Source of the DNA: Gracilariopsis chorda
Lineage: Eukaryota; Rhodophyta; Florideophyceae; Gracilariales; Gracilariaceae
Reading direction: 5' to 3'
Assembly (NCBI GenBank): GCA_003194525.1
Contig: NBIV01000244.1
Coordinates: 51,372 to 115,371 of the forward strand
Length of the DNA: 64,000 bases
This document shows positions 2,931 through 64,000 of this stretch, in pieces. The notes beneath the pieces are model-generated. The model was not told where the DNA came from and made no database searches. It was given only the letters and a program-made list of their open reading frames with translations. Numbering within the stretch: position 1 is the stretch's first letter; every line of letters starts with the position of its first letter. The translations under genes and the position numbers were made by a program.

Positions 2931-2933
2931 ACG

Positions 2934-3553
2934 ATGTTGAAAGAGAAGAAAAACACTGCAGCAGTGATGGTTGAAAATCAAAAGAGAAAATCCGTCGAAA
3001 GCAGAAACCTTCAATGCAACAGGGCTGTCAAACAAAGTTATAAAAAAGAGAAAGACGCCATTGCCAGACCTAAAACGCAGAAGACAATTGTTTTTATCAC
3101 TTTTCCCAAACTAACCATGCAAGCTGAGAAGAACGTCGTACCAGATCTGGTTTCCAAAAATGTCATCAAAACCTTAGTTACCGAAGATTTCAACACAAAC
3201 AGTCAAAAAACGATGGTTTGAGTAGTGTGGTAGAACATTTCGACAAACTGAAGACATTTCTGTATTGAATAGGACAAGCACAGAAACTAGCAAAGGTAAT
3301 GGTAGCGGAAAATGACAAGAGCGGGGAATATGCCCATGAAGCAGCGCAAGCGTTGTTGGATATGTATGGGTTAGAATCAAAACTTGCGGAATCACATGAT
3401 TTATTGTTTTATGAATCGGTTGATGATCGAATTTGCCTTGAAAACGTATATTTCAAGCCATTTTGGTTTGTGTGGAAAGACGAAGGCGTTCTAAAGAATT
3501 CTGTAGCAACTTTGGAGGACTATGTGGACGTGAAAGACGGCAAAGAGGTGTAA
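2934..3553 (+). pseudogene. Unknown lysine-rich and acidic ORF remnants
   Basis: Two plus-strand open segments, 2934-3221 (95 codons, lysine-rich, basic) and 3299-3553 (84 codons, with a segment like EYAHEAAQALLDMYGLESK), lie in different frames and are separated by stops. The A-rich composition differs from the C/G-rich LTR just upstream. The amphipathic second segment looks protein-like rather than random, but I do not recognise the family. It may be a broken small gene or the remnant of a DNA transposon. No intron with convincing splice signals was found to join the two. Confidence 0.3.
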
Positions 3554-3559
3554 TTTTGT

Positions 3560-4620
3560 CTTGTAATCGGTATCAGAATTGGAAATGGGTGGTGTTGCAA
3601 GCTTGATTGTGTTGTACAGTTTCAATAAAAAAATGTGCTTAAAATGGGTGGATGTGCGTCTATAGAGCCAATCAAACGGCAAAGATGTTCCTATCGACCC
3701 TTTTGGGGAAGCATATAAAGATACTTGCCAGTCTCAAATGTGGAGTCTTACTCAGGGCCCGTGCGAAGGCGCCCTTCAGGGTTTGCCAACCTTCCAAAAA
3801 CGCAACAAAACACTATGAAACGTTACGGCAGACGAAGGAGCCAAATGTAGATGCGATTAGCTTTTACTGTCTACTCGACCAGCATCATGATCTTATATGA
3901 ATTCAAAGCGCTTACCGAGCCAAATAAACTTAACAAATTGCTTAATGGCGCTAAATAAAGACATTTTCAAATATGATATTTAAACGTGTGCTAAAACCGT
4001 AGTATAGTGCTAGCAGATGTACTTTAAGTAGTTCCTACATTGCTCAAACCGTTACTAGTAACAATTCAGTGGTTGCAAGGGCATATTTGAGCAAATAGAC
4101 CATGAGTTCAAACGTCGCTGCGCTTCTACAAGCTCGAAAAGGTTTCGTGGAGCTCGACTGATTGTAGTAATAAATTTGATCTCAGAACGTGTAAGCACGC
4201 CCACTTAAACAGCAGAAAGTATAAAGTGACGCCTGTTAAATGGGTAGTTTTGACTTGTTTCAAAGTTTATCTGGGAAGGTATACACGAGGATTGAACGAG
4301 TAGAGGACTATGAGAAATTGACCTTTTGTCTTTTTCACGCAAAATAGACTTTCCGTTTACTACTAAAAACGCATTTTGACACACGTCTTGACAGCATACA
4401 GCTATCTAAAGTGGTATGGCACCGTGCTAAACTTCGACATGACTCTTAAAACAATTTCTTCCATTAACAATGGGATATAAATAGACTTAAGGAATTCCTC
4501 CTTTAATGGCAATCTGAAGATAAGAAATTGGACTTCTTATTTCCTTTGCAGACATTAATATTCCTTGGTATAAAGATTTTAGATTACTTCCATTAAGAAT
4601 TTTTCAATTCCTATTTTTCT
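3560..4620. other. AT-rich stretch without a gene
   Basis: About 1 kb of AT-rich sequence between the small ORFs and the piggyBac-like pseudogene. Only one short frame (3652-3900, +) occurs and it has no recognisable content. If the pseudogene was part of a piggyBac element, its 3' terminal sequence would lie here, but I could not identify an inverted repeat or a TTAA duplication. Confidence 0.4.
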
Positions 4621-4623
4621 TCA

Positions 4624-5950
4624 TTAATGAATACAAGCTCCCTCTGGTTGTAGTTGATCTTCTGTTTCTTCCAATTGTTCTGCACTTCTTGCCGTTGAGT
4701 TGATTCTATCGCATGTATTTGCTACTAGCACTTCTGTTAGGTCGCAATAAAAGGTACTTGGAATTTTTAACTGGGTAAGTCCATTTGATGATTTGCAAAT
4801 ATTCCAAGCGCCAACAATAACTATTGCCAATAGAGAGCTGCTGAATCGAAATGAAAATTCTTTTATTTCAATTTTCTTCTCCACCTTAAGATCATCCTGA
4901 CGACAACGATTGTGTCTGTCTATCATTGGATATGTTTTGTAATAATCCTCAAAAACCTCTAAAATTGGGACTTCGAGCTCAACGTTCCTGGAAATATTGC
5001 CTTGTCGTCCCCATCACTCACAAGAATAAGGGTTTCAAGGGGTAACTTTCCACAAGTAGATATCAAGTATCTCTTTTTCCTATTCACCCAAATACCTTCC
5101 ATTAATGTTTACCAATAATGTTTCTTTTTGAGATCATAGAAAAAAAATCACAATAATTTGATAATTTTATCTCAGAAAAGGCTTCATTGGAAACCACGAT
5201 TCTCGTTCTAAATAACTCCAGTAATCCGTAACTCCTTTTCAATACAGCATTTGCCGCTTTTACAGAGGCGGTAAAAGATTCTGCTCAGAAATGTCTCTCA
5301 GATTCAAACCAAGGTTGTCCCAAGCGTAGTGAAGCTGTAGTTCGATTATCTTCATCAACTTCCGGAGCTGAAGCTTGAGAGCCCATTTTAAGCTCGATTT
5401 TAAGCATACGTTAGCGTTTACAACAGCATAATCTCTTCATCTCTAAATCTTTTTCGAGCTTTCCATCCAAAGCACTTCCCTGAGGAAGATCAAAGTCAAT
5501 CCAGTCTTCACCAAGCCCATACCTGCGTGAAATTCTTTTATCAACGCAAAGTGCATGAGAAGGCAAGGCAAACAAATGGCAATGGTCATTAACTTTTTTC
5601 AGTAAATTCTTATCCTATTTATAGCGTGCATTCCCCAGCTCATCGCATGCCCCATTTTCACGGAAGATAGTACAACTTCTCAGTGCTTCAAAACAATTTC
5701 ATGACATTGCGTTAGGAATGCACACTGGAGCTATTAATTGCAACATTGGCTTAGAACTCCATAGAACCCTTCGATTTGAAAACTCAAAGTGGATCATAAG
5801 AATGCGAACTCCGAAGAATCGTGAAATCTCACCACCAGATGTTCTGGATGAATCTCTACTTTCCAGAATCTCATTCGTCTTGGCGGTTATTGCGTCCAGA
5901 CGTGAAGTAGGAAACATCTACATAAATTAGTTGTGGAGCAACGCGTGGCG
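4624..5950 (-). pseudogene. PiggyBac-like (DDE_Tnp_1_7) transposase pseudogene
   Basis: Translating the minus strand gives consecutive fragments in order with the character of the piggyBac-derived DDE_Tnp_1_7 transposases common in protists. 5917-5699 contains FFGVRILMIHFEFSNRRVLW. Around 5680-5640 is EALRSCTIFRENGACDE. Around 5560-5470 is CVDKRISRRYGLGEDWIDF, matching the usual VDE-S-WYGQGG-W block, followed by a DxKLEKDLEMK-like segment. Around 5290 is HFCAESFTASV. The C-terminal ORF 4926-4624 carries the typical HNRCRQDDLKVEKKIEIK block. Frameshifts and stops separate the pieces, and the E of VDE is replaced by K, so this is a dead gene. It reads opposite to both flanking LTRs. Family assignment rests on remembered motif order, not a search. 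Confidence 0.72.
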
Positions 5951-6009
5951 CATACATTGATGAAGATCCTTATCGTAAAATGTACCGATTCATCGGCTCA
6001 ACTTTTCTC

Positions 6010-7110
6010 AGGTTATGACTTTTCCCAACTTTTGTGTTGATATTAAGTCGATTACGGACGGATGTTTACCTGAAAGGTTAGTTTATGAGTGGCCTCATAC
6101 AGGCAAGAAGCGTGGCGCGCGTGTAGGGGAATTGGATCCGATTACGGATATACGACTTGGGCGAGTGGCACCTGTGGACCCTGCCAGTGGGCTCTCCAGG
6201 TGTATGGAACTCGGCAGGTTTGCACTAATTTACTTAATTATTTTAGTTATTTATTGTAGAACCTACTTAGGTGAGGCTGACCTGGCGGGTGCCAGCACTA
6301 CGCAAACTTAGCCGAGGTTTGCACCCTAACTATAGTGTTCGCTCTGGTCACAACTGCCTTCGTAGTTTCACAACACCATCTGGAGAATAACCACGCTTGG
6401 TGGTTTCAGTGCGACTATCCCCTTGGAATCGTTTAGCACATCTGTATGAGTACACTGACCGTGGGTCTAACAGTGTTTGTTTATTTTGTGTATCCTGTTG
6501 CAGGACAGATCTCCGCCCCAGTATTGGTTTGTTTCGTTAGTTTTTATCCTATTTTACCCCTTGGTTCTCGTGTCTGTTTCCGCTGTGAGCACGACCCTCT
6601 CCCCCTCGTTTTCTGGTTCTTTTCCACCTTTTGGGAAACTATACATGCTGTGTACGCTGTCTACTTCCCCTCTCTCGGGTTCTTCTCTGACCTCGTTCCT
6701 CTCAGGAATATTCATATTCACACCTACAGCTTTAGCCGGTATCCACCGTTGCATTTATACCAGACACTCGTGTGGATTAGGGGGATCGTTCACTCAGTCA
6801 ACCATACATAGGTACCAGGGATTTGGACGCCTTTAGAGCTACAAACTTCGCTGGTTTTGCTTGATAAGTGGTCTGTGGACTTAGAACCTACGTTTAAAAT
6901 TTGAGCTGGAACTATTCCTGGTCTCTTGATGGTTTCAACCGTTTTCGAGAGACGTTGTGGAACTTGGAGTAGGGATTGTGAAGAACTCCTTCGTCAAGAT
7001 TGGATGTCAGGGAACCTGCATTGCAGGTCCTGAAAAGGTTCCTTTTTTGTTGCTACTCCGTTTTCCGGAAGTTGTTGAGTTCGTTTATTTAACACAGATT
7101 AGTACCGGTT
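6010..7110 (+). repeat. Probable 5' LTR and leader of A1
   Basis: Position upstream of the A1 gag and scattered similarity to the other family-A LTR copies support this: an AT-rich TTTTAGTTATTTATT block at about 6240, which A2 has at about 56233; the AGCCGGTATCCACC block at about 6733, which copy 1 has at about 2793; and the T/C-rich stretch at 6540-6680. Perfect short hairpins typical of this family occur here, for example 6135-6148 (ATCCG-ATTA-CGGAT) and one around 7014-7031. The boundaries are approximate because divergence is high. Confidence 0.6.
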
Positions 7111-7112
7111 CT

Positions 7113-8886
7113 ATGTCTGCAGTGTGACGCCATCTGCTCCGAAATCTCGTAGTGGATCTGCTTCCGCAGCTGTGCCGGCCCAAAGGGCTCCGCGCTCTAT
7201 ATCTATACTCAAGGATCGAGACAATAACGAAACTGATCCGAACTATCGGAAAGCACCCTCAGTTGCCTCGGCACCACAGAAGGTCGTTGCTGCCAGCCAA
7301 CCCCCCGTAGTTGAGAAACCATTAGCACTCAATCGAGGACTCACTGAGCGTAAAGAAATCGCCGGTTTGGAATTCCGCATGTATATTGCTAACGCTGCTC
7401 ACGTGGACCTCTTGACAGACGTTACCGAACTTCGGCGTATGGTTGAGGACGCCTAAGTTTGGAATATCCCAGAATGGATTCGTCTCTTGAGGCGGGATGT
7501 AAATTCCATCTTGGAAAGCATTGGTGCCCCAGAGGTGTTCGCTCAAGAGTACCGATCCTTTGTGGATGATGTCCGTGTGAATTCAGATCAAATCAAAGCG
7601 CGTTTGGATACCATGGAGGAAATGATCCTTATGGATCACGCAGTAGAATCCAAGGGCGGCGAAAAAGTGTTCTCTGAAGGATCAGCTCACAGGTCCGATA
7701 AACAGATCTCTGCAGACCGAAGAACGATATATACACCGACTCGGATTCATCTGTGTCAGACTCGCCCCATCACTCTTTGAGTTCATTATCCGACTCGTCG
7801 GATAGTGAACACCGTAGCAGACGCCACCATGCCTTGCATTCTAAAGCTACATACACCTCTAAAGGTGCTATCCGCTCACGGAAGAAGGGCCGAAGACGTT
7901 CGGGACTCAAGGACCTGAAACCGACGAGTCCGCTTTTATCGGAAATTGCTTTCGTACCCCTACTATCGGTTAGAAAACTTTACTGGAAATCGTTCTTACC
8001 GAGGAACTGAAAAGGTTGAAGCCTACATTAAGCATGTGGAAATTGCTCTTCAGAAGAGAGAATTTACAGAAGAAGACCCCAGTCTGGTGTTAGAAGTCCT
8101 TACAAGTGTCATATAGAAGGCCGACATACAATCAATGAGTGAAGCACAGGCGTAACTCTCCCTACCCTCGTTCCTCAAGCGAATGGCTGAGGACCAACTT
8201 AACTCCGTCCGCCGATCGTCCAGAGCCTCTAAAATCGCAGTTACGTGCTGGCCCGAAGCCGTTCATTACCTTCTAGGGTCGTATACCACTGGTTATGGAA
8301 TCCAAGAATGGATTCTACCACTACGGGATACGAAGCAAAAACCGATGGAAACCGAAACGGTCTATTCAGGTGTTTGAATAAGGCGTTTCATCGTTGTGGT
8401 AATTTGTACTCCTCGCAGGAAAGGTGCATAATGTTTGGGGATGGATTGCACCCTGCCATAAGATGTTCGATTGCTCGGCATCGGGAAGCGAAACGACATA
8501 TTTCGTACTTGGAACTGGCGCAGTATGCCCAGGCTGAAGGAGATACCCTCCGCACCCGGCAAGGCACCAAACATTGGTCGTCGCAAGCGCGCCTTTTGGA
8601 AGTATCCTACACGTCATTCGTCCTGTTGAAAGGTAATAGCTTCCGCCAGGGACACGATCATATCCAACTTTTGGGAACTAACTACAATTCCCTGGGAACT
8701 ACGGATTTGCAATCGACCTCAGTTCCGACTTCAGCTGGAGACCATGCATTCTGTGCCCATGGCACTTGAGTACCTGCGGCACCGCTCGCTTTCGCAAATA
8801 ATGCTGCTCGCTTCTCACGCCCTGTTTGAAGGAATAAAGCACCGCAAAGAGGGGACGGCCATCCACAGAAAGAACATCACTCGGTC
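7113..8886 (+). pseudogene. A1 gag, N-terminal and central part
   Basis: Fragments in shifting frames match A2 Gag in order. 7487-7700 (RRDVNSILESIGAP, then KARLDTMEEMILMD) corresponds to A2 RSDVNSVLESLGQP and HARLETLEQFVLMD. 7753-8010 holds the Ser/Asp tract and GRRRSGLKDLKPT. 8183-8377 reads EDQLNSVRRSSRASK then TCWPEAVHYLLGSY. 8380-8570 reads NKAFHRCGNLYSSQER then YLELAQYAQAEGD. Gag is the structural protein that packages element RNA. At least four frame breaks and several stops make it non-functional. It is cut at 8891 by insertion of element B and resumes at 15636 with the zinc knuckle. Confidence 0.88.
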
Positions 8887-8891
8887 ATATG
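8887..8891. repeat. Target-site duplication ATATG, left copy
   Basis: ATATG abuts the 5' LTR of element B (which begins TGTCGGT at 8892) and is repeated at 15636-15640 directly after the 3' LTR (which ends CACA). Five bp is the normal duplication length for Ty3 integrases. Confidence 0.92.
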
Positions 8892-15905: not shown

Positions 15906-16039
15906 TGGGAGTCTCTCCTATGGGAGGGGCGTCTTCTATGTTCAGGTTAAAGGCGCCCGGGGCGCCGCAGCTTCGCTCCTGAGCTGTAAAACTTCTTTCG
16001 AAAGAAGTAGCTGACACAGAAGTCAACTCGGAACAATTC

Positions 16040-16578
16040 GATGCGTTGCGTCGCCAGTGGATACGGTCCCATAATTCGCGTATCCTGAACGGGGTTTTGG
16101 GTACGGCCAAGCGATACTCTACAGTTTACGTCGATCTGGGCATTTCTAACCAATATGTGGTTCGACAGTTATCTATCTTGGACACAGGAGTTGCCCCAAA
16201 CCTGATCCACCAGCATTTGAGACCCAGAGACTGCTGCAGGAACACGTTTGTTACGGTCCAAACTTGGATATTGAGGACGCCAATAAGAACCCTGTGCATG
16301 AGGTTGGTTATACCTCACTCCTTGTAAGGTTGGGAACCTTCATGGTACGATTATACTTATTAATCTGCGAGTCGCTCGCTGCACCCATTATACTCGGTTG
16401 TGATTTTTGCGACCGCTTCGTCGAGGCAATACGCTCTACGGCAAAGACCTTCGAAATGGAAAGCGTTTGTTCAGTCCTGAATGTTTGGAGACTCTTAAAG
16501 AGCGCGACGCGTAATGGTATTCCATTACCCGTCGCACAGGAAGTTCACAACACGGATCCCATCTCGACAAAGCTTTGA
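16040..16578 (+). pseudogene. A1 protease region
   Basis: 16046-16327 and 16264-16578 overlap in different frames. The first reads RQWIRSHNSRILNGVLGTAK then LSILDTGVAPNLI, the aspartic protease Asp-Thr-Gly site, matching A2 RPWIRSKNPRIPGRVLVLAK and LTVLDTGAGPNFV. The second reads ANKNPVHEV, LVRLGTFMVRLYLLICESLA and ILGCDFCDRFVEAIR, matching A2 VRLGTSVVKLDFIVCRSLA and ILGCDYCDRFVDAIR. One frameshift separates the two halves, so no intact protease is possible. Confidence 0.88.
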
Positions 16579-18600
16579 GTAGCTAAATTCGTCAGTATCC
16601 CACCCAAAACTCAGATATGGGTCTCATTGAGTACCAAACAGACTGCTGTACATTTTGGTCTACCGCTTGCCGCTTTCTATGAGCTGCGCCAACTGGCTCT
16701 CGCAAATGGAGTTATTTCCGTGGAACCCAACAAACCTTTCAAGGTCCTGGTAGCCCTTATGGCAACACCACACTGTAGTTAGTCAAAAACAAGATACGTG
16801 GCTCGGTTCTACCTCACCCTATGTCAATCGTCCCAAGGACAATACCTGTTGCTCAAGTTTTAAGGATTACATACCCAAAAGAGGGGAAAGAACTCATAGA
16901 CACGAGGCGAGAGAACACCGAAGGTGTATCAAGCGCAGGAAATACTGCACTATTGGAACATGTAGTCATGCATCCAGGTACGTAGCAATTAGATTCTGTC
17001 GAAGAATCAGAGAAGTTGAACTTGGACCACCTCCCAGAATCCCATCGTGAGAAATAACGTGATATTTTACGGGAATTCAATCCCATTTGTGATGGTTCCC
17101 TGGAGACAATAGTAATTACAGAAAATCGAGTGGATATGCTTCCGAAAATTTGACCAATCGGGCAACAACCTTATTGGTCTGGCCCGGAGGCACGGGAATT
17201 AGAAAAATCTCAAGTCGAGAAGATGCTACGCTCGGGCGTTACTGAGCCTGCGCAGTCATGTTGGGCGTCACCAGTGGCGTTGGTTCTAAGAGCGTATAAA
17301 TCCTGGCACTTTTGCATTGACTACAGCCGTTTAAACGCGGTCACAATAAAATTTGTATATCGGATACTCTGGATGGATGAGTATATCGACTCATTCGAGA
17401 ATGGTTTACAGGTTTCGATGCGAGCTGGGGTTACTGGCAAGTTCGTATCCGCCACGAAGACAAAGAGAAACGTCTTTCGCGTCGCATCAAGAACTATACC
17501 GTTTTCTGCATATGCCTTTTACGCTAACGAATGCTCCAGCAACCTTTCAAAGGGCGATTTACATTCTGGTAGCCCGCTTTAAATGGAGAACCTGCTTGGT
17601 GTGAATGGAGGACATCATCGTCTTCTCCAATAATTTGGATGACCACTTAGGCCACGTGAGGGACGTTATTCTAGTACGCCACGATGCCAGAATCACCTTG
17701 AAACTCAAGATGTGTGAGTTCATAACTGACTCGGTGAGTTACTTAAAAACATATAGTCCGTCTGGGACAGCTATTCATCGAGGAGGTGCGAGTCAAATCT
17801 TTACAGGACGCCAAGCACCCTACGACCCAAACAGCTTTTCGCTTCTTTTTAGGATTGTGCAACGTGTATCTCCTCTTCGTCCCGAACTTCACGGAAATTG
17901 CTAGCCCCCTCAAAAAGCTCCTGAACAATGGGCAATCAGTCAACCTGGAACCATTCTGCAACGCAGAAGTGTCTGCCTTTACGGCTTTGATGAAAGCCGT
18001 AACATCTACGCCTATTTTGGCACTCCCCCACCCTGGGTTACCTTTCGAGGTCAACACCGACGCACGTGCAAACCAGGGTGCTTTTGCGCTGTTCGAGGTA
18101 TCAGAAGATCCCGTACGACACCGCTAAGGTTTTGGTCGAGATTCATGAACGTACACGAGCGTATCTGCTCGGTATCCAAGAAAGATTGCCTGGCAGTAGT
18201 GTGGGCCTCGTCCACACTTACAACCTCCTTGATGGGTACCCACTTCAAAGGGCATACGGACCACTTGTGCTTTCGCTGGCTACTAGAAATTTCCGAACCT
18301 TCGGGAACGTTGATGCGCTGGAGTCTCCGACTTTTGGAATTCGATTTTGATGCCCTGTACAAAAAGGGAGCCCTTAACACTCAGGCCGATGCTTTATCCC
18401 GTCTGAGAACAACAGCCAAAGCAGAATATACTGAAGATCTCGATATTCCCTGCTTCATGGTTGCCGACATTTACGATGGTGCTGAAATCCTGCCGGATGA
18501 CTTGTGCGATGAAATCCTCACCGCCAAACCTTCAGAAGTGCCTGCCGGTTTTTTTGTACAGATTTATCCTAAGAAAATCATACGATAACAATAATCAGAT
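16578..18600 (+). pseudogene. A1 reverse transcriptase and RNase H
   Basis: Several frames match A2 in order. 16600-17200 is the spacer upstream of RT. 17223-17400 reads MLRSGVTEPAQSCWASPVAL and FCIDYSRLNAVT. Near 17600 is MEDIIVFSNNLDDHLGHVRD, where the YLDDI catalytic block has become MEDI, losing one catalytic Asp. 17786-18127 reads FFLGLCNVYLLFVPNF, the post-RT connection. 18145-18588 reads CLAVVWASSTL and HTDHLCFRWLLEISEPSGTL, the RNase H end, then KGALNTQADALSRL. The copy is catalytically dead. Hairpins typical of the family are still visible, e.g. 17981-18000 (ACGGCTTT-GATG-AAAGCCGT). Confidence 0.88.
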
Positions 18601-19660
18601 TCTTTCTGCACGCTGATTGCTTCCGACTTAACGGTGGACACCAAATACCATTATCGGTTATTGATTAAGGATACCTCGTCAGTCTAGTTGAATCTTGACC
18701 CCAAATTGTGGTGGCTCACCGGTTGATACAGCGCATTTTACTTCTATCACACTTTGTGAAAGTTGGAGCCCACACTGGAGGAAGGAAGTTGTACCTCACA
18801 CTGAGGCGAGATTTATGTTGGCCCTATATGGCGTTTGACTGCTATGCAGTTCGGCACTCGTGCACGTAATATGCTAAAAATGACTTCAAGTTGCGTAAGT
18901 ACTCCAAACGAGTGACACTGTTCCCGGCGCGGGCACTTTTACAATTTGTCGCAATCGATATCCTAGAGGAACTTGTTTACAGTCCCCAAGGTCATCTGTA
19001 TCTACTCATAATAACCGATCGGTTTTTAAAACTCGTAAGAACGATTCCGTTGAAACGGATTACCGCTAGTGTGGTGGCGCGAGCCTTCTTCACCCACTGA
19101 ATCTTTGTCTACGGCCCACTGGTACAGTCACTCTCCAATAACGGATCGCAGTTCATCTAAAAGTTTTTTAAACCTGTATGCCGTATCCTGGATATCGAGA
19201 ACCTGTTTGTCACTACGTACCACCCTCAGGGTAATGGTTCGGTAGAACGCTTTAACCGTACAATGCTTAACGCATTACGATCCTATGTCGCAGATCACCT
19301 CAAGGAATGGTTTCTCTACACAGACGCTATAATCTACGCATCCAACACCCAGGTACACAGAATAACATCGCTATCACCCTTTGAGTTGGTTCTCTCACAG
19401 AAACGGCTTCCAGTTGCCATCGAGGCTCTATCAACTCTCTCCAGTTACCCCTCGCCGGGTCTATACCGCGAGGCGTGGAAAAAGTGGCTTACCATGATGC
19501 TTCCAGTCGCTCTCAAGGCAATGGAGAAAGCACAAAAAGCTTACAAGCGTAACTTCGACAGAAAGGTCAAACGGCGGCTACTGCAAGTGCGTTCAAATGG
19601 TTACGTGTTCCTCCAAAAGGAGTGTTAACTCCGAGAAAAAACATGAGCATAAGCTTTCCT
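18600..19660 (+). pseudogene. A1 integrase
   Basis: The HHCC finger is readable around 18750-18870 (HTGGRKLYLTLRRDLCWPYM). The core follows in several frames: RVTLFPARALLQFVAIDIL contains the first Asp at about 18957; LSNNGSQFI has Asn in place of the second catalytic Asp at about 19140; GSVERFNRTMLNALRSYV holds the catalytic Glu at about 19243. 19263-19628 carries the C-terminal part through SPFELVLSQKR and AQKAYKRNFDRKV. Stops interrupt the core, and the D-to-N change alone would inactivate it. Confidence 0.88.
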
Positions 19661-53453: not shown

Positions 53454-56054
53454 GGTAAGCCCCAACCAGATCCTAACCCAATCTTAGACGAAGGGGCTCC
53501 AATATCAACAGGGGGTATAGTCACCGCGGCCCGTATCTGCGACATACTTGGGATAAGACTGAACCTCGACCCACCGCGAGAAGAATACTTACAAGGATGG
53601 GGTCCGAACGGCATAAACGCTAAACCAATTAAATGCTCCTGGACGCTCACCGTCAATGACGAAGCATCCAAAACTTTGGCACTGACATTTGACCTAACTG
53701 ACGGCGATGATCCACTTATTGTCGGTCTGGACATCAAATAGCACTCAGATACAATCAACAGGGGGGCATACCGAAAACTCATCATCGAAAGACCGGAAGA
53801 CAAAGGACCGCGCATCTTACCAACATACATATATATCATCGGATGCGATAAACGACTGAGGGTACTCATCGTCCCACAACCGAACACAATGAGAATGTCC
53901 AAGATGTTACTAACTAGTTCCAACCCGAATCGTGCACGAGCTATGAAGACGCTTGCGAAACGCATACACAGATACACTCATGCACCGGCACACGAGATAA
54001 AGAGTATCTGTAAGGACGCGGGAATCCTCGATAAACCGCTGAAACAAGCAATAGAAGAAACATCAAACGCATGCGACATATGTGCACAATCCGGACAACC
54101 ACCACGAACCAGGAAAATATCATTGACCCACGTGAACGAAGAGTTCAATCAGGAAGTACAGATCGACTTTTTCTTCGTACAGATCAACAATGAGCAGCGG
54201 AATGTGATCCACATCACAGACACAGGCACGGGATACTCGGAAACCACTATCGTAACGAACAGATCCGCAGTCACTATCCTCAAGGAAATAGAATCCATAT
54301 GGATATGCCGACATGGATGCCCACTAAGACTATCAGCCGACGACGAATACAACTCACCAGCACTCAGAGCATTCTGCATAAGTAACAACATCCAATACCG
54401 ACCACGACCAGCTAGAAGGCATAACAAATTGGGAATAGTTGAACGGAAAAACCAATCGATTAAGAGAATCATCGAGAAGATCAACAAAGAGGAATCTCAA
54501 GATGATCACCGCACAATCCTTACCAGGGCCACATTTCTATCGAACATATTCTCCGGTTCAACCATTCTAAGCTCCTTTGAACTCGTGAAAGGCTACAGCC
54601 CGTCACTTCTCGGAATACCAACCAAGGTTATATCACAGGAAATCCTCAACGCACATAAAGAACAAGTAGCAAACAGAGCGATACACAGACTTCTGAAGAC
54701 ACGATCCCCGATTACTACCACCGCTCACATGCTACCTCAAGGAAGACTGATCTACGCTTTCATCAGACCATCACGCGGCACATAATATTGGGTGAAAGCT
54801 GAAGTAATCGATCCCAGGGATCATTACGTTGTGGCAAGGAGGACGAGACAGGGTAAACCAATGAAGATTGCATATGAAGACATTCGACTAGTACCAGAGA
54901 ATTCTCTGGCAGCCGAACTGATGCAAGACACATTGGAAGACGCCCTCGGATACAACAATGAATCACCGAAAGCAGGGGGGAGAGAAGAGATCTCGGAGAC
55001 CGACCAAGAACACGAAGTGCTTTCGGTGAACACTCATTTGATATCATCACGAAGGACCGGCGATGAGTCTGAGCACCGGGATATTGGCATACACGCTAAA
55101 AGGAGAACAGAACAGAAAGTACCAACAGAAAATGAGTTGAGCTCCGAAAAACAGAGAGTACTGACAAACATATTCGAACATGTTGGAACTAAACAACTCA
55201 ACAGGAACGACCTGTCATTCGCACCACCCTGGATTCTCGACGATGCATTCGAAAAAGAACACAACAACAACTGGGTAAACGCTTACACACCAATACCAGA
55301 AAGTGAGGTAGAAAAGAACGCAAACGTAATTACATCTCATGTCGTATACAAAGTGAAGACGGACGAAGACGGCCAGCGCATGATGAAGGCGAGGATAGTA
55401 CCACACGGCAACAGGGACAAGGAAAAGGACGAGATCCGTAAAGATTCGGCCACTGTGCAGCTAGACATCGTTCGACTTCTTCTCTCACTCACAACGTTCT
55501 TGGGCTTTAGACTCCCAGCGATTGATATCACGGGGGCCTACCTTCAGAGCGGCCCAATCAGGAGAGATATATTTGTTCGTCCACCGAGAGAATGGAACGG
55601 AGCACGAGGGATATTATGGAAGCTTATTAAGCTACTGTACGGCATCGTTGAGGCAGGAAGACAATGGATGAAGGTCGTAGAGCACTGGATGCTAACACAT
55701 GGCGGCCTCGAACGCGTACTAGGCATTGTGCAATTATACGTTAAACGTAGGGAGGGCAAGATTATACTCATTATCGCCAAACTCACCGACGATTTTCTCA
55801 TTTCTGGTAACATCGGAGATTCGAAACAATTCATCACGAGCATAGGGAAGAGATTCGTGATCGGAAAGACAGTAATCGATGGGAAAATATTAATCAGCGG
55901 GTGTGAGATAAAACAAGACAGGCTAGGAACAATAACGATGTCAATGCACAGGTACATGAAAAGACTGAAGCTTATACATCTTGAGAGAAAGAGAAGGAAA
56001 GAAGTACACTCCATAGTGACAGAAAGCGAGAAGAAGATGTTTAGATCTCTTTGA
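53454..56054 (+). pseudogene. Copia 2 pol: protease, integrase, RT
   Basis: One frame with two nonsense codons (TAG at 53739, TAA at 54783). The protease is PNPILDEGAPISTGG, then GDDPLIVGLDIK. The integrase finger is HAPAHEIKSICK through CDICAQSG, with core Asp in EVQIDFFFVQ, Asp in LSADDEYNSP and Glu in LGIVERKNQS, so the DDE triad is intact. After the connection (AYEDIRLVPENSLAAEL) RT follows (55200-56000): AIDITGAYLQSGPIRRDIFV, then IIAKLTDDFLISGN at about 55783, where the usual Y-V-D-D is T-D-D. The frame ends at 56054 in SEKKMFRSL; the RNase H region beyond is missing because the family-A element starts there. Confidence 0.88.
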
Positions 56055-56056
56055 AG

Positions 56057-56870
56057 TGCAACGCCCTCAGGGAGGGATTCTGGGTACTTGAACGCTTTCC
56101 CGATATTATCGGTTGTGTAGTGTGTATATGAACTACGCCCCACAATGGTGGGTATGGACACGTGGGACACGGTTTTGGGTCAATTGGCGGTTGGCCACAG
56201 TAGTGGATGTTGCCACGGAATGTGGAGTATTTTAGTTAATTTTATTTATTATTTTCACACCCATTTCTGGGAAGCTAGTACTTAGTGCGACGGCGCACTG
56301 CCGTCGCACCAGTAAACCTTCCCCAACAAGGGACCCCAACCTGGGGAATTGGCTCTGAGCTTTACCGCCTCCGCGTGTTCCCAACTCCTCCTTGGAGGGA
56401 AGCACCGTAGTGTACGGAAGTTCACCCCCCTTGCACATCTAAAGGAGACCCATCATTGGGAGTACTAATTGTTCCAATCATATTGGTGTTTCGCCCTGTA
56501 TAGGGAGCCCTGTCCACCGGCATTGCCGTATCTACTCGTCGCTCTCGCGACCCACCTCGTCCTTCCTCTTTCCCCTTTTTAGGGTAGCACCTCCCGCTAT
56601 CCGCGGCCCTCGTGTGCGCATCCGCTCACACACCCCCACTTACGTGGAAACATACCTCTACTGAGGATCACACCCCGCTCACGCGGATACCGATTCTTCG
56701 CCTTCACCTCCCTGCGCGAGTCGCGACCGGTGTCCCTGGTCTTACAAACCGGCTTCGCCGTGACACCTCTGGGAGGGCTCTACCCAACTGGGTTCACCTC
56801 GTGAGAGGAAGATCCCGGACGTCTTTCGGTGTTTTTCCCCTTTGGGGCATTGCACCACAAAGTGGTCTCC
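56057..56870 (+). repeat. 5' LTR and leader of A2
   Basis: It begins near TGCAACGCCCTCAGGGAGGG, directly after the broken end of copia 2. It shares blocks with the two orphan LTRs (AT-rich TTTTAGTTAATTTTATTTATT at 56232; GGCTCTGAGCTTTACCGCC; CCCAACTCCTCC). The LTR end is not fixed: TGGTCTCCCAACC at 56863 could be a primer-binding site. Perfect hairpins occur roughly every 30-40 nt, among them 56064-56076, 56285-56309, 56334-56346, 56405-56417, 56538-56551 and 56854-56866. Confidence 0.65.
56285..56309 (+). promoter_or_regulatory. 10-bp perfect stem-loop in the A2 LTR
   Basis: GTGCGACGGC (56285-56294) pairs perfectly with GCCGTCGCAC (56300-56309) around GCACT. It lies just downstream of the AT-rich promoter-like block, so it would sit near the 5' end of the element RNA. 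The function is unknown; an RNA packaging or translation-control stem is possible. Confidence 0.55.
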
Positions 56871-56964
56871 CAACCTAGAATCGGTTTTTGTTTTCCCTCT
56901 TACGAGGTTTGTTTTTATTTACCGGAAGTTCCGTGATCGTTTCCCGTCGTAACGGTATTTTCTC

Positions 56965-58629
56965 ATGTCGAGAAATCCCTCCGACGCGGAGCCAGTGGTT
57001 ACGCGTAGTCGCTCCCGCGACAACGCGGACACTTCCGAAGTTCGGTTCGTATCCCGTATCCCTATACGGACAAGTTCCAGCCGTGCTGGCGCCGCTTCAT
57101 CGCGGAATGATACCCCCGACCGGGAACCCCGGAACCTCCTTTTGCCCTCGTTATCACCCCCGCAGGGGAATGCAGCATCGGCTCCGGCTGTTGCCGCAGT
57201 GCCCCAGGCACCCCGGCCTGCTCCCGCTGTCGCGGCTTCAAGCCCCCGTGGAACGGGCGATAACACCCCCCATGGGACTTCCCTGGAATCCCAGGTCCGC
57301 GCTCTGTGGACCGCCCATGACACCCTTGTAGGGGAACTAAAATCCCTCCAAGAGGTGGTCTCGGCAACCCCCGTAAAGGAGGTCGCCGAGGAGCTCCGTA
57401 TTTTACGGTCTGACGTCAACTCCGTGTTGGAGAGTTTGGGACAACCCGCCGCCTTCATCGAAGCAGTTGAAGCCCGATTTGATCGGATTCATGCCCGCCT
57501 GGAGACGCTGGAGCAGTTCGTCCTCATGGACAAACCATCCCCGGGTGATCCGGTCAACGAGGCATCGCACAACGACCAGCTTGCTGGGAAGAAGAAACGC
57601 CGTCACCGACGGAAACATCACCGAAAATATCCGGACTCCGATTCTTCGACATCGTCGGACTCACCCCGAAATCATTCGGTTAGGTCGAGCTCCTCGGACT
57701 CCGACTCGGAGGACGAGAAGCGAGGCTACTCCTCCCACTCGAAGCGGTCATCGGCCACTGAAGGTGTGGTCCGAACCCGCCAGAAGGGGAGAAGACACCC
57801 CGGTCTCCGGGAATTGAAACCGACAAACCCGGATTACCGGAAGCTTTTATCATACCGGTACTACCGGCTTGAAGATTCGTCACTTGGACGTACGCCCCGT
57901 GGTACGGGAAAAGTGCGAGAATGCATTAAGCGAATGCAGCTCTCGCTCCGCATCCAGTATTTTACTGGAGAGGACCCAGTCCTAGTACTGGATTTCCTAT
58001 CCCGCTTTGTAGCGGAGGCCGATATCCTCGGTATGAATGAGGGACAAGCCTATTTGGCTTTACCGTATTTCTTACGGGGAGTGGCGGAGGACCAATACAC
58101 CTCTGTCAGAGGATCTTCTCGCGCCTCCGAGGGAGGAGTTACTTGCTGGCCGGAGGCTGTGCAGTATCTTCTGCGCTCCTACGCCACCAACACCGCTATT
58201 CAGCAGGCTATCCTCGCTTTGCGAGATACACGCCAGCGTGCTGGAGAGACCGAGACCGATTACTCGGTGCGCCTTAACAAGGCTTTCCACAGATGTGGTA
58301 ACGTATACCCCGCTGGGGAGCGCAGTACCATGTTCATTGATGGTCTTGACCCGGCAATCCGGAGTTTAGTTACCCGTTATCGGGAGGACAAGCGAAGGAT
58401 CACCTACCTCGAGCTGGTCCAACACGCTCGAGCGGAAGGGGATGCACTTCGTGCAAGAACTCCGAACAATCGGTCTAAATCCGCCAAGGCGTTGTTGCTG
58501 GAAAGCGAAGCTTCCTCTCTCCCGCTCACCGCGGATGGGAACCCTGGACAGGGATTTGATACCGTGCATCTAGCGCAGGGGATGGTGTGTCGATACCCAC
58601 CAGTGATTTGCCGTCAACGACAGAGATGA
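56965..58629 (+). pseudogene. A2 Gag, main frame
   Basis: 554 codons from ATG. Order: an Arg/Ser-rich N-terminus, a Pro/Ala-rich linker (57130-57280), a coiled-coil (LESQVRALWTAHDTLVGELK, then RSDVNSVLESLGQPAAFIEA), a His/Lys/Arg and Ser/Asp tract (KKKRRHRRKHHRKY, SSSSDSDSEDEK), then the capsid region (ITYLELVQHARAEGDALRAR near the end). It assembles the particle in functional relatives. The frame leaves the conserved path near 58.59 kb, where the zinc-knuckle part continues in another frame. An upstream start is unlikely, because this ATG precedes the first conserved residues and the leader before it is hairpin-rich and stop-containing. Confidence 0.82.
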
Positions 58630-59138
58630 CTCGTGATACGGGAACGGAAGACCCCGTTTTGTACAGTGGTAACAGTCGGCTTCAACCTCAACGACTCCCG
58701 TTTTCAAACGGTCAATCCCGTTATCAACTGCCTGGATGGACTGACACCCGCCCTGCGGTTCGCTTCTCCGATACTCGGAATAATAATCCACGTGTCGCGG
58801 TGTTGGCTCTCATATGCCACCTGTGTTATACCCATGGCCATACCTCACCCCAGTGTATTTGTTCACTGAAGGATATGGCCAAGGTGGTGGCAAATTATGA
58901 GGCCGTCACTCCAGAGGAGAAACGTTCCGTCCCGACGGCTTCCTACCTCCGTGCTAAAACGGACTTTTCCCACGCCCTACCACAGACCCCGCGTGCGCGG
59001 CAAGCTTCATACACCCCGATTCGGGAGATCACGCAACCATCCGTTGCAACCCCCGCTTATGCGGATAGAAACCCCCGTCAACGGGATGAAGCACTCGTTG
59101 TCGAGGAAACCAACCCACCGCCGAAGGCGGAAAACTAA
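58587..59138 (+). pseudogene. A2 Gag, zinc-knuckle frame
   Basis: A continuation in a different frame, overlapping the end of the main Gag frame by about 40 nt. It carries CHLCYTHGHTSPQC (C-x2-C-x4-H-x4-C) and NYEAVTPEEKRSVPTASY, matching A1 at 15.65 kb. Whether this is a programmed frameshift or a mutation cannot be told from one copy. A1 is no help because it is interrupted near the same place by element B. Confidence 0.75.
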
Positions 59139-59155
59139 CTGAGGGAGTCTCCCCT

Positions 59156-60501
59156 TTGGGAGAGGCGTCCTCAAGAACGAAGCTGTTGGCGCCCGAGGCG
59201 TCCTCGCCTCGCTCCCCGGTGAAAGTCCTCTCGAGGAAAGACACCGCTGACGCGGACTCTGCGCACCTCGGTGTGTTGCGTCGCCCGTGGATACGGAGTA
59301 AAAATCCCCGGATTCCCGGTAGAGTCTTGGTCTTGGCCAAGCGCAATTATAAGGTCTATGCCGACCTTGGCCTTGACCCCCAGTTTATGGTGAGGTTTCT
59401 CACCGTCCTGGATACAGGTGCAGGCCCCAACTTCGTTGTGGAATCATTGTTACCCCCGCTTGTGCGGTCTCGTATCCGCTCTGACGCGGTCCCCGACATT
59501 TCGGATGCGAATAACAACCCGTTACAAACGGTGGCACAGTGGACCTCGTCGTGAGACTTGGTACCTCCGTGGTGAAGTTGGACTTCATCGTTTGCCGTTC
59601 ATTGGCAGCACCAGTCATACTGGGATGTGATTACTGCGACAGATTTGTCGACGCAATCAGGCCCCGCCTCAGGCGTGTAGAACTTGACGACGGATCGTCG
59701 GTTCCGATTGTTCGCCGCCCGCTAAAGTGGTCCTTTCGGAAACAAGTTCCGCTCCCTGCTGCGCAGGAACCACCGCCCGCGTCCCGCGAGTCCACCAAGC
59801 TCCGCGTCGCTGCCTCGGTTTCTATACCGGCTGAGTCCCAAGTCTGGGTGCAGGTAAATTCCCGTCAACACGGTCTTCGGGTTATACAACCCCTCGCCTC
59901 GTTGTACGAGAAATCCCAGCTGGCGCTGGCTAATGGAATTGTCCCCATTTCCCCGGATGTCCCTTTCCGGATATTGGTTGCCAACGTTGGCAAACACCCC
60001 CAGTATCTGGTCAAACACCAAGTAATTGGGAGTGTAACCCCCCATCCTATGGGAATGCTGCCAACAAAGATGACAGCCGCCGATGTACTCGGAGTTACCA
60101 CCTCTTCTGAGGAGTTCGCCCCGCCGTCCGAAGACGTCAAGTCTAAGGAGGGGGAGGAAACCGCTACTTCAGCGCCGAACATACCGAGTAACTCGGAATT
60201 GCGAACCACACCTGTTCCACAGGACAATGCTCCATCGAGCAATGACCGGATTGATCCGGAAAAAGCACTTGAAGCGCTGGACTTCAGCCACGTGCCAGAG
60301 TCGCACCGCGACAAACTCCGTACTATGTTACGGGAATTCACCACAATGTGGGATGGCTCGCTTGGCGAGATTAATGCAACGGAACACCGGATCGATTTAA
60401 TCCCCGGTGCGCGACCGGTTGCACAACCCCTTACAGGGCAGGTCCGAAAGCTCGGGAAGAGGAGCAGTCCCAGGTGGACAAGATGCTCCGCGCAGGTGTG
60501 A
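59156..60501 (+). pseudogene. A2 protease and spacer
   Basis: Two frames. 59156-59554 has RPWIRSKNPRIPGRVLVLAK and the aspartic protease site LTVLDTGAGPNFV (Asp-Thr-Gly at about 59411). 59539-60501 has VRLGTSVVKLDFIVCRSLA, ILGCDYCDRFVDAIR and a long spacer rich in Pro/Ser/Glu before the RT (HIDL-type EHRIDLIPGARPVAQPL at the end). A frame change near 59540 splits the protease; another near 60450 separates the spacer from RT. Confidence 0.85.
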
Positions 60502-61660
60502 TTGAGCCCGCTCAATCACCCTGGGCATCCCCAGTTGTACTGGCTTTAAAGGCCGACGGAACCTGGAGGTTCTGTGTCGACTACCGCCGGCTCAATGCCG
60601 TGACTGTTAGGGACACGTACCCCATCCCTCGTATGGACGAGTGCATTGACTCCCTTGGAGACGCCACCGTGTTCACGGCCCTTGATGCCAATTGGGGATA
60701 TTGGCAAGTACCTGTCAGACAGGAGGATCGCGACAAAACCGCATTCACCTGCCATGCAGGAACGTACCGCTTCAAGCGGATGCCATTTGGGTTAACCAAC
60801 GCCCTCGCCACCTTTCAGCGTGCAGTAGATATTCTACTCAACCGCTTTAAGTGGCGGAGTTGTCTGGTCTACCTTGATGATATCATCATCTTCTCCAACT
60901 CGTTGGACGACCATCTCACTCACGTCCGAGACGTGCTCACCGTACTCCGCGATGCGGGAATTACCCTCAAGTTGAGGAAATGCGAGTTTTTCACAGATAC
61001 TGTGAAGTATCTGGGTCACATTATCCGTCCTGGACGGTTAGCGATCGAGAAAGCTCGAGTCAAATCCCTCTTTGAGGCGAAAGAACCCCGTACTCAAACG
61101 GAACTGCGCTCCTTTCTGGGACTGGTCAACGTCTATCGACGGTTTATCCCGAACTTTTCGGATACTGCAGCGCCCCTGAACGCGTTGTTGCGAAAGGGGA
61201 ACCCCCAAAACTGGAACATTTACGCCCGAGCAATCGGAAGCTTTTAACTCCTTAAAGGAGGCTGTCACATCAGCACAATCCTACATCTCCCAAAACTTGG
61301 GTTGCCATACTCCGTAGATACGGACTCGAGCGACTACCAAGTCGGGTGTGCTCTTTTTCAAACCACCCCCGAGGGGGAACGGCATCCAATTGGTTATTGG
61401 TCACGTTCGCTCAATGTTCATGAGCGGAACTACTCCGTAATCGGAGAAAGAGTGCCTCGCCGTCGTATGGGCGATGACCACTCTGCGCCCCTACCTTATG
61501 GAATTCACTTCACCGTGTACACGGATCATTCCTCATTGAGGTGGTTGATGAATATCTCCGACCCGTCGGGACGCCTCATGCGCTGGAGACTCCGCCTCGC
61601 GGAATATGACTTTTCAAGTCATTTATAAAAAGGGTGCGCAGAACACCCAGGCCGACGCTT
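60474..61660 (+). pseudogene. A2 reverse transcriptase and RNase H
   Basis: 60474-61247 is an almost complete RT: AGVIEPAQSPWASPVVLALK, RFCVDYRRLNAVTVRDTYPI, FTALDANWGYWQVPVRQED, RMPFGLTNALATFQRA, catalytic YLDDI at 60870-60884, and FLGLVNVYRRFIPNF. It leaves the frame at about 61240. RNase H continues in 61302-61628: VDTDSSDYQVGCALFQ, NVHERNYSVIGE, VYTDHSSLRWLMN. Then KGAQNTQADALSRL follows in yet another frame. Key Asp residues of both domains are visible. It is broken only by frame changes, so it is recent. Confidence 0.9.
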
Positions 61661-62700
61661 TATCGCGGTTACCCACAAGTGGGAAGCACTCCCAATGGAG
61701 GATGATGAAGTCCATGCTTCATGGCTATAGACCCGGGTGATCCGGAACATGCCGTCGAGGCTAGGCCAGAAACCTGGGACGAGGATGCTGATTTTGACGA
61801 ACTACTCGCATCGCGAGATAAATCTGAGAACCCGTTACCGGGAAACTTTTGTACCGGTATCACCGGAAGAAATGATCCGAGAACAATTCGGCGACCCATT
61901 CTGTACGAGAATTCGTGCCCGTATCAACGGTGGTGAAGATCTCTCTTTCGGGGTAAACGACAAAGGCTACCTCGTAAGAAAGGTCGAAGCCCGCCCACAG
62001 ATTGTGGTACCACATTCCCTGCAATCGCGGGTGTTACATCTATCACACTACGCCCCAATTGGAGGTCACCCAGGTGGGAGGAAACTCTACCTAACCCTGC
62101 GAAGGATTTCTATTGGCCCGCAATGGCGGTGGATTGCTACGCAACTGTGCGGTTTTGTAGCGAATGCGCGAAGAATCGCGTCAAACTCCGCAAAAATGCG
62201 AAAGAAATGAAACTATTCCCCGCAAGGGCGCCCCTCGAGTTTATTGCGATCGATATTCTCGGACATTACTCACCACGAAACGTGGAAACAAGTTTCTACT
62301 TGTCATTACCGACCGCTTTTCTAAGCTGGTAACGGACTGTCCTCTTCGGAGGATAACCGCTCTCACGGTGGCCCAGGCTCTGGTGACGCACTGGATTTTT
62401 GTCTACGGTCCCCCTGTAGAGGTGCTCTCTGACAACGGGAAGCAGTTCGTGAGCAAGTTCTTCCAGGATGTTTGTCGCATCCTGGATGTCAAGAACTTGT
62501 TCACGACTACCTACCACCCCAGTGTAATGGGCAAGTTGAACGGTTTAACCGGACGTTACTCGCGGCGTTACGTTCCTACGTCGCTGACCACCCAACGAAT
62601 TGGGATCTCTACGCTGATGCGGTAACCTACGCGTACAATACGCAGGTACACCGGACTACGAGTTTCGCCATTCGAGTTAGTTCTATCTAGAACACCCCCG
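61660..62700 (+). pseudogene. A2 integrase
   Basis: Read through three to four frames: zinc finger HYAPIGGHPGGRKLYLTLRR and FCSECAKNRVKLRKN (about 62045-62200), core Asp in FIAIDILGHYS, Asp in EVLSDNGKQFVSKFF at about 62430, and Glu in NGQVERFNRTLLAALRSYV (about 62540), so the DDE triad is present. It continues to NTQVHRTTSF. The element inserts itself by this enzyme in functional copies. Single-base frame changes around 62280 and 62530 break it. Confidence 0.87.
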
Positions 62701-64000
62701 CCCTGTGGCGCTGGAACCCCAAGCTACCTTGGACAATTTCCCATCTGTGGGTATCTACCGGCAGCAATGGAAGCAATGGCTTTCCAAGCTGGTCCCCGCT
62801 GCGCGGAAGTCTATGCACGGGCCCAAGCCGCTTACAAGCGGGATTTTGACGCTCGCTTGCGAGGAAAACCGTCCCCGATTCGGGCAAATAACTACGTCTT
62901 CATCAGGAAAGGAATACTACAACCCGGAACGGGAGAAGCGTCACAAACTCTCGCCTGTGGCGGATGGACCCTTCAAGGTCATCTCTGTTAACACCGACAC
63001 TGTCGTGGTAGAGATGGGGACACGCACGAACGGATTTCCCGTGATCGTGTTGTCCTTGCCCCTCCTCCCTCGTCAGAGGTAGTCCTGGATCCAGGCAACC
63101 CCGTTTCTACGGACTCCGCTACACCGGAACAATCCGGGAGTACTAGACCTACGGTACTACCACACCCCAGCCGGGGACTCTCAGACCTACCGACTCTGTC
63201 GGACTCACCGGCTCAGCCGGGTAATTCGGGCCCCTCAGCGCCCGCCCTACCACTGCCCCACTGGCGCGCATTATACCCGCCAGGCGGGGAATGTTATCCC
63301 TTATCCCGCCGCTCCGTCTAAGGAGGGGGAGGAGAACACTCGTTTTCGAGGAACGATATCACCCGTCGCAACGGGAAACACACCGTAACATACGGAACAC
63401 TGACCGTGGAGCACGGAGTATGTCACGCGACACTAATCCCCCGTTCCCGGGCAGTGCTGTGCAACAGGAACCAGACGCGCAGGCCCCGCAAAAGCGGCAA
63501 TACACCGTTTGTCACGGGAAAAACGAGAAGCCTCACTCCAATACCGCAGCAGCGGAAAGGCAATCGCCCGATGCCTCGAAGCCGCCGTTGGCGGAAGTCC
63601 CCGAAGCGGTTCAATCAGGTCGATCAGACCCGCGCCCTGCGGAGAAGGGGCGCCCAGATACGCCGGCCTCACAGGGGAATACCCACACCCCTCTTGGGGA
63701 AAAAGGCGCCAAGCTGCAGTCGAAGCTTTAAGCCCTGGCTCGCAAGCACCGGAAACGCCTCCCGTCGTTGACGGAATCAAAGCCCCCGCTACGGGGAATA
63801 ATTTGCGCCAACCCCGCATCGCTGCGGCGAAGAACCGAGGAACTCGGGAAATAACGCGCGCCATCGCACGCTCGAAACCGGTCGTACCGGACGCTGCTCC
63901 TCCTCACGGAGATGGTGCACTGCGCTCAGCGGCAATTCCCCTGAAAAGGGTGTCATCGGCACCTGCCCGAACCCCCCAAAGGGGAATTTTGACCAAAATA
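62700..64000 (+). pseudogene. A2 Pol C-terminal tail
   Basis: 62705-63082 and overlapping frames contain the post-integrase segment (AQAAYKRDFDARLRGKPSPI in one frame, SPVADGPFKVISVNTDTVVV in another). A C/G-rich extension follows to the end of the window. It is Pro/Arg/Ala-rich in every frame and no domain is recognisable. Between 63180 and 63900 ten perfect 5-bp stems with 3-4 nt loops can be counted, the highest density seen. The tail corresponds to A1 19.66-20.42 kb. Confidence 0.6.

What the first reader, a model, noticed from the sequence alone, without database searches (positions are those of the whole stretch)
56057..64000. A Ty3 retrotransposon saturated with tiny perfect hairpins
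Throughout A2 short perfect inverted repeats recur, mostly CC-NNN-loop(3-4)-N'N'N'-GG, with a different stem each time. Between 63180 and 63900 I count ten perfect 5-bp stems with 3-4 nt loops: starts 63208 (CCGGC-TCA-GCCGG), 63276, 63362, 63383, 63404, 63582 (CCGCC-GTT-GGCGG), 63784 (CCCCG-CTA-CGGGG), 63814, 63835, 63878. Equal base use predicts about 1.4 (one per 512 nt). In gag there are 57008, 57054 (6 bp), 57245, 57396, 57666, 57699, 57896, 58012, 58213 and 58255. The leader and LTR also carry many. Stem sequences vary while pairing is kept, so pairing rather than a protein-binding motif is what recurs. It crosses coding frames and untranslated parts alike. This could be genome-wide ordered RNA structure, protection from silencing, a reverse-transcription aid, or the product of hairpin-templated mutation. 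I know of no described retrotransposon family with this property.
Basis: partly seen in the sequence, partly recalled or inferred. Interest (0 to 1): 0.92.

Follow-up and report, generated by a model that had tools for sequence, protein, structure and literature searches.

The report
Algal retrotransposons packed with mini-hairpins
A group of jumping genes in a red alga carries tiny, exactly matching hairpins of about 13 bases every few dozen bases, and in the family studied closest the variants that spread between copies have mostly left these hairpins intact, which points to an unrecognised signal written along the element.

Summary
A2 (56052-64000, cut by its contig end) has 114 perfect 5-bp stems with 3-4-nt loops; 1000 dinucleotide shuffles gave mean 17, maximum 30. 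It survives synonymous-codon shuffles. Copias, MULE, element B, three other distant Ty3 lineages and one host gene are near background.

Six families of one Ty3 clade share it. The enriched object is narrow: mostly 5 bp + 3 nt or 4 bp + 4 nt, outer CC...GG. In four families CC-NNN-loop3-N'N'N'-GG occurs 76 times against 2.0 expected.

Stems are strictly Watson-Crick: perfect stems 3.4-fold, one internal G-U 0.94, A-C 1.01, other mismatch 1.04. RNA stability alone does not predict this.

In family A, singleton variants break hairpins as random mutation would; variants shared between copies rarely do (2 CC..GG losses against 21.9 expected at third-codon and noncoding sites). Derived changes lie in both arms. 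I read this as selection, not hairpin-templated mutation. Hairpin positions turn over; compensation between families is weak.

Best guess, unproven: docking sites for an element-specific protein that reads DNA hairpins.

The parts
56052..64000 (+). Element A2, Ty3-like retrotransposon of family A, 5' end to the contig end; 3' part and 3' LTR lie beyond the contig
   Evidence: 19 aligned copies start at 56050-56052 or are cut by their contig; contig length 115371 = window end
56052..56859 (+). 5' LTR (808 bp by inspection: TG...CA ends); carries CC..GG hairpins, e.g. 56100, 56213, 56405, 56474, 56594
   Evidence: LTR repeat of at least 781 bp seen in copies L017 and L020; ends read; hairpin list
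56863..56880 (+). Candidate primer binding site (begins TGG, 3 nt after the LTR); by inspection only
   Evidence: sequence; tRNA match not tested
56965..58629 (+). gag frame (554 aa in A2; 724 aa in copy L020), 26 stem-5 loop 3-4 hairpins vs 3.85
   Evidence: no Pfam match
60474..61247 (+). Reverse transcriptase
   Evidence: PF00078, E 4.5e-36
61302..61628 (+). RNase H
   Evidence: PF17917, E 1.9e-23
61737..62625 (+). Integrase zinc-binding and core pieces, in two overlapping frames in A2
   Evidence: PF17921 E 0.00043 (below its cut-off) and PF00665 E 3.5e-12
63180..63900 (+).

Best explanation
SHOWN: a clade of Ty3 elements in this genome carries a high density of perfectly Watson-Crick mini-hairpins, mostly 12-14 nt (5 bp + 3 nt, 4 bp + 4 nt, 5 bp + 4 nt, 4 bp + 5 nt), preferring outer CC...GG; in family A this holds along the whole length, and hairpin centres are mostly at least 16 nt apart. 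In family A, variants that are shared between copies break them far less often than chance. INFERRED: each hairpin is a docking site, free of position and reading frame, for a protein specific to the element (Gag/nucleocapsid or a piece of Pol). The protein needs the short stem-loop shape and touches the outer C-G pairs. Because wobble pairs earn nothing, I think it reads DNA hairpins (single-stranded cDNA in the particle, or both strands) rather than the sense RNA alone. Selection acts on how many sites the molecule carries, so single sites come and go.
For: Size cap and CC..GG bias (0 GG..CC of the 5/3 kind vs 1.9 expected, 76 CC..GG vs 2.0) that stability does not explain: computed RNA energy favours GG outside (-6.31 vs -5.58), DNA is neutral (-3.97 vs -3.92). 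Watson-Crick strictness: computed RNA would tolerate G-U (5/3 hairpin -5.37 to -4.38; A-C -2.50), DNA would treat G-T and A-C nearly alike (-3.88 to -2.08 and -1.52). Present in six sister families, near background in four distant Ty3 lineages of the same host, which points to an element-specific factor. Preferred shape and outer pairs differ between families (A 5+3 73 vs 6.9; F5 4+4 46 vs 9.8 but 5+3 5 vs 2.5; F2 prefers TC, CC, AC). Shared variants spare hairpins, singletons do not.
Against: No protein, binding or probing data. Sense-strand flanks lean to A in family A (3' flank, all six families pooled: 48% vs 38% after other GG), which hints at the sense RNA. GG-outer hairpins of all shapes together are somewhat enriched too (17 vs 10.4 in A, 9 vs 2.7 in F2). 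Individual hairpins are poorly kept between families: 1050 of 1290 comparisons broken, and unchanged stem pairs are only slightly commoner than matched controls (47.4% vs 45.0%). The shared-variant result rests on one family.
Confidence: 0.38

Rival explanations
1. Dispersed RNA packaging or compaction signals: the hairpins form in the sense genomic RNA and bind Gag, as proposed for many RNA viruses.
For: All parts of the element are in the genomic RNA; uniform density; local folding of A is stronger than shuffled (mean z -1.38 sense, -1.10 antisense); A-leaning sense flanks. The packaging-signal model has motifs varying around a shared recognition feature (PMC6281560, passages).
Against: One internal G-U is no more frequent than in shuffles (260 vs 275.8), and between families G-U is not favoured over A-C in stems (449 vs 508; outside 2441 vs 2326). 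Larger, more stable RNA hairpins are little enriched.
Confidence: 0.22
2. Evasion of silencing or antisense pairing: hairpins in both strands make the transcript and any antisense or small RNA fold on themselves.
For: A need in both strands would explain Watson-Crick strictness. The genome has two near-full Piwi-domain genes. 38% of 21-nt windows in A hold a whole hairpin vs 11% shuffled; small RNAs of 22 and 21 nt are commonest in Chondrus crispus (PMC4872230, passage).
Against: Longer stems or loops should serve as well but are little enriched; the CC..GG orientation is unexplained; most 21-nt windows hold no hairpin.
Confidence: 0.14
3. Hairpin-templated mutation or correction during reverse transcription writes and restores the palindromes without selection.
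For: Uniform over coding and noncoding parts; a correction step in each cycle would also remove shared breaks; 12 of 16 hairpins with two strictly derived changes have both in one arm (no matched control); four Watson-Crick double-change events among young copies against six other double changes.
Against: Singletons gain hairpins at the null rate (44 vs 46.0; 57 vs 58.3). With matched controls, hairpins with two derived changes are not one-armed (13 one-arm, 15 split, CC..GG set) and with three or more none of 20 is one-armed (tests share data). Double changes in stem pairs are hardly commoner than in control Watson-Crick pairs (12.1% vs 11.6%). Distant Ty3 and copia elements of the same host lack it.
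Confidence: 0.12
4. A DNA-level role of the integrated element: mini-hairpins extruded in double-stranded DNA affect chromatin or transcription.
For: Watson-Crick strictness and near-equal DNA energy of both orientations. N4 virion RNA polymerase promoters show that short DNA hairpins with fixed and free stem bases can be read by a protein (PMC4496689, passages).
Against: Confined to one element clade; sense-strand A flanks are not strand-symmetric; theory was said to predict that short hairpins extrude only at unphysiological supercoiling, although N4 hairpins do extrude (same passages).
Confidence: 0.1

Closest known systems
Genome-scale ordered RNA structure (GORS) of RNA viruses (titles and abstract starts seen)
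   Same: Genome-wide excess of internal pairing across coding sequence
   Different: Here the excess is in 12-14-nt Watson-Crick hairpins of capped size; folding energy is only modestly lowered and does not single out the clade: a hairpin-poor element (L039) has the same energy difference, 13.4% vs 13.1% in A
Dispersed packaging signals, MS2 as model (PMC6281560, passages seen)
   Same: Many dispersed stem-loops that vary around shared recognition features
   Different: About 180 non-redundant CC..GG hairpins in 8.9 kb, no G-U tolerance, no known binding protein
Bacteriophage N4 early promoters (PMC4496689, passages seen)
   Same: Short DNA hairpin with a 3-base loop, some stem bases fixed and others free as long as the hairpin is kept
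   Different: Only three promoters are spoken of in the passages; here the hairpins fill an element
Yeast Ty3 genomic RNA structure (PMC11381356, abstract and section list seen)
   Same: RNA of a Ty3-type element with structure
   Different: The abstract reports a folded core, cis-elements and 5' dimer palindromes; it mentions no hairpin array of this kind
Chromoviruses (abstract start of PMC3605345 seen in a listing: present also in red algae)
   Same: Family A is Ty3-like with a C-terminal chromodomain
   Different: No hairpin array is mentioned in that abstract start

Membership tests
Chromovirus (Ty3 with chromodomain) | Ty3-type RT, RNase H, then integrase | tested here: met
   for A2 (domain order); RT tree
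Chromovirus (Ty3 with chromodomain) | chromodomain C-terminal to the integrase | tested here: met
   PF00385, 4.4e-10, in L020; beyond the contig end for A2, not tested in F1-F5
GORS | genome-wide lowered folding energy against shuffles | tested here: inconclusive
   A 13.1% sense, 9.8% antisense; F1-F5 3.5-8.6% sense; hairpin-poor L039 13.4%
RNA structure under selection for stability | G-U pairs tolerated in stems | tested here: not met
   internal G-U 260 vs 275.8
Dispersed packaging signals | many variable hairpins with a shared recognition feature | tested here: met
   outer CC..GG with free inner pairs
Dispersed packaging signals | binding by the coat or Gag protein drives packaging | not testable with these tools
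   needs binding and packaging assays
Hairpin-templated mutation | new mutations create hairpins above chance | tested here: not met
   44 vs 46.0 for 637 singletons (L011's dropped)
Hairpin-templated mutation | changes that make a hairpin lie in one arm | tested here: inconclusive
   not met with matched controls; others (12 of 16, strict rule, no matched control; 4 Watson-Crick doubles) point the other way
N4-like DNA hairpin recognition | protein binds the single-stranded DNA hairpin | not testable with these tools
   needs binding assays

The most novel reading that the evidence does not exclude
A whole retrotransposon genome is overwritten with a second, position-free code: hundreds of Watson-Crick-perfect hairpins of about 13 nt under ongoing purifying selection, read in DNA (or needed in both strands) by an element-specific protein whose preferences differ between sister families, and laid over protein-coding sequence through synonymous choice.
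Probability: 0.36. Interest if true: 0.95.

Novelty: categorically new. Interest (0 to 1): 0.86.

Why it matters
If the hairpins are docking sites, this clade evolved a dense element-wide signal that is neither a local cis-element nor ordinary RNA structure, and it would be a natural system for asking how a genome carries hundreds of protein-binding hairpins on top of its genes. The differing preferences of sister families offer ready partners for swap tests of the binding part in vitro. The contrast between singleton and shared variants among copies is also a simple way to measure selection on nucleic-acid structure in transposons.

Tried and rejected
Composition or codon bias: rejected by dinucleotide and synonymous-codon shuffles. 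A host-wide property: not seen in 13 flanks of A copies (54 vs 47.6, sd 7.6), one host gene (31 vs 30.1), the MULE and copia stretches or element B. Simple stability: size cap, orientation and wobble tests speak against it. Strict periodicity: centres in A peak at 18-24 nt with few under 16, but a hard-core-plus-exponential model is not rejected (KS p 0.06), and pair distances agree with gap-permuted controls; I claim no period. The first covariation test used slid partners as control (24-28% Watson-Crick among double changes against 273 of 604); double transitions keep any Watson-Crick pair Watson-Crick, so that control was too lenient. Against Watson-Crick pairs outside stems the excess shrinks to 44.7% vs 36.3% in four families and 40.8% vs 35.3% in six. 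The wobble test on shared variants was uninformative (G-U 12, A-C 13).

DNA of related elements elsewhere: none in viral contigs; in genome contigs two Ty3 loci in bacterial symbiont assemblies of molluscs, with a mild stem-4 excess (z 2.5 and 3.9) and no CC..GG excess (1 vs 1.8, 3 vs 3.1). An exact 13-mer count led nowhere. Seven paper searches listed no paper whose title or shown abstract start reports such an array; they cover only the held open-access library.
Full report
WHAT IT IS. The window is C244:51372-115371 of a contig of 115371 bases, so A2 is cut at 64000. A2 starts at 56052. Its last kilobase matches 39 other places of the 91.3-Mb genome at 97-98%; only 40 of 665 candidates were scored. 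Twenty loci were fetched and compared; 19 of them plus A2 were aligned (L019 left out). LTR-to-LTR distance is about 8.92 kb; the two LTRs match over 716 bp (L020) and 781 bp (L017), both cut by the fetched end, at 99.86-99.87%. RT and RNase H and integrase pieces are Ty3-like. Copy L020 has open gag (724 aa) and pol (1853 aa) frames and a C-terminal chromodomain. Among the 120 listed RT relatives, those carrying an organism name are red algae, Agarophyton chilense and Chondrus crispus. The organism itself is not named by the tools.

THE EXCESS. In A2, perfect 5-bp stems count 70, 44 and 18 at loops 3, 4 and 5 against 8.6, 8.7 and 8.0 in shuffles. Maximal hairpins over A2, L030, L034 and L035: 5+3 115 vs 14.1, 4+4 184 vs 57.6, 5+4 53 vs 15.3, 4+5 98 vs 43.4, 4+3 132 vs 56.8, 5+5 16 vs 10.6, 6+3 9 vs 3.8, 3-bp stems at 1.0-1.1. 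By my arithmetic 13 of 128 loop-3 stems of 5 bp or more go beyond 5 bp, where chance extension would give about a quarter, so size is capped. The excess holds in LTR, gag, pol and the 3' part and against synonymous shuffles.

WHO HAS IT. Loci around other RT genes (chosen from the 150 best-scoring Pfam hits and the list, so not a random sample) fall into further families: F1 (L029, L030, L032, L033), F2 (L031, L034, L036), F3 (L035, L037, L040, L041, L044), F4 (L045), F5 (L048); pol identity between families is 57-72%. All 14 of these loci are enriched. Maximal CC..GG hairpins, each counted once: A 180 vs 10.6, F1 43 vs 2.3, F2 18 vs 3.5, F3 28 vs 2.6, F4 14 vs 2.2, F5 13 vs 2.2. In the CC..GG tally, which counts a 5/3 hairpin twice, B shows 8 vs 2.8; six of the eight entries are two LTR hairpins seen in both LTRs. 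The six rich families lie on one side of a branch with support 99/97, with eight proteins from the database and an old F2-like copy among them. Milder excess elsewhere in the window (1-50000, stem 5 loop 3: 84 vs 51; 1-8889 z 4.6 and 15636-41000 z 8.0 for stem 4) is partly due to an old F2-like copy at about 15907-19559 and an A-like gag relic at 7367-8616; I did not account for all of it.

WATSON-CRICK ONLY. With outer CC..GG and loop 3, three inner Watson-Crick pairs occur 76 times against 2.0; with one inner G-U 8 vs 3.0, A-C 9 vs 2.8, other 31 vs 12.0. Over six families and any outer pair, perfect 920 vs 273.1; one internal G-U 260 vs 275.8, A-C 311 vs 306.4, other 1212 vs 1162.7. Between families, single changes in stems give G-U 449 and A-C 508, against 2441 and 2326 outside. 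Computed energies say that RNA would tolerate G-U and that DNA would treat G-T and A-C alike. This is why I favour DNA, or a need in both strands. Against it stand the A-leaning sense flanks, clear in A and present in small samples of F3 and F4 but not in F1.

SELECTION. Among A2 and 19 copies, 637 singleton variants (those of L011, the most divergent copy, dropped) lose 274 and gain 44 stem-4 hairpins against 268.4 and 46.0 for changes matched by trinucleotide and codon position. The 167 shared variants lose 33 against 62.9 (sd 7.3; 0 of 150 nulls as low) and gain 21 against 13.8 (13 of 150 as high). At third-codon and noncoding sites, 115 shared variants cost 2 CC..GG hairpins against 21.9 (0 of 150; double counting of 5/3 hairpins applies to both sides). 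All; the simpler version with L011 kept agrees. A correction step in each reverse-transcription cycle would also deplete shared breaks and is not fully excluded.

ORIGIN AND TURNOVER. Of 1290 hairpin comparisons between four families, 131 were kept identical, 55 kept with compensating changes, 1050 broken, 54 gapped. With a fair control, double changes in stem pairs are Watson-Crick in 44.7% against 36.3% (692 and 11514 double changes), and 40.8% against 35.3% in six families; rows are related, so the p values (1e-5, 2e-6) are too small. Density, not place, is what persists. Derived changes in CC..GG hairpins fall in both arms; a strict rule without matched control gave 12 of 16 two-change hairpins in one arm, and four Watson-Crick double-change events exist among young copies against six others. 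In A, centre distances peak at 18-24 nt and are seldom under 16; I claim no period.

MECHANISM. A size-capped, orientation-biased, Watson-Crick-strict unit whose preferred shape and outer pairs differ between sister families, found only in one of the element clades tested, looks like the target of an element-specific protein. It would work like N4 hairpin promoters or dispersed packaging signals; membership in either is untested on the protein side, and plain RNA-structure selection fails the G-U test. Gag or nucleocapsid is my guess only; no tool result singles it out.

LIMITS. One genome; most tests use one locus per family and, for F1-F5, about 3.5 kb of pol; one host gene as control; controls are shuffles and matched sites. 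That paired letters mean a physical hairpin is inference. The odds of the best reading and the novel case were lowered slightly after the fairer covariation control.

Noticed in passing
own genome: contigs C483, C648, C777, C944, C317, C345, C626, C785, C882, C143 and others: Besides two near-full Piwi-domain genes there are 44 short Piwi matches, 30 of them with stops, many in opposed pairs a few hundred bases apart and repeated about every 8.0 kb in C483, C648, C777 and C944. This looks like a multicopy repeat carrying Argonaute-derived inverted repeats, possibly a source of hairpin RNA aimed at host Argonaute.
   Followed up: no
   Followed up: no
window 15907-19559 and 7367-8616: Old relatives of the hairpin-rich clade: an F2-like pol at 64-66% nt identity and an A-like gag relic found by translated comparison.
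   Followed up: partly
L046 and L047: Ty3-type RT loci (42-45% aa identity) sit in genome assemblies of bacterial gill symbionts of molluscs, probably host contamination; both have a mild stem-4 hairpin excess without CC..GG.
   Followed up: partly
L020:975-3038 (minus strand): Family A pol has a long low-complexity, proline- and serine-rich stretch between the integrase and the terminal chromodomain.
   Followed up: no
   Followed up: no
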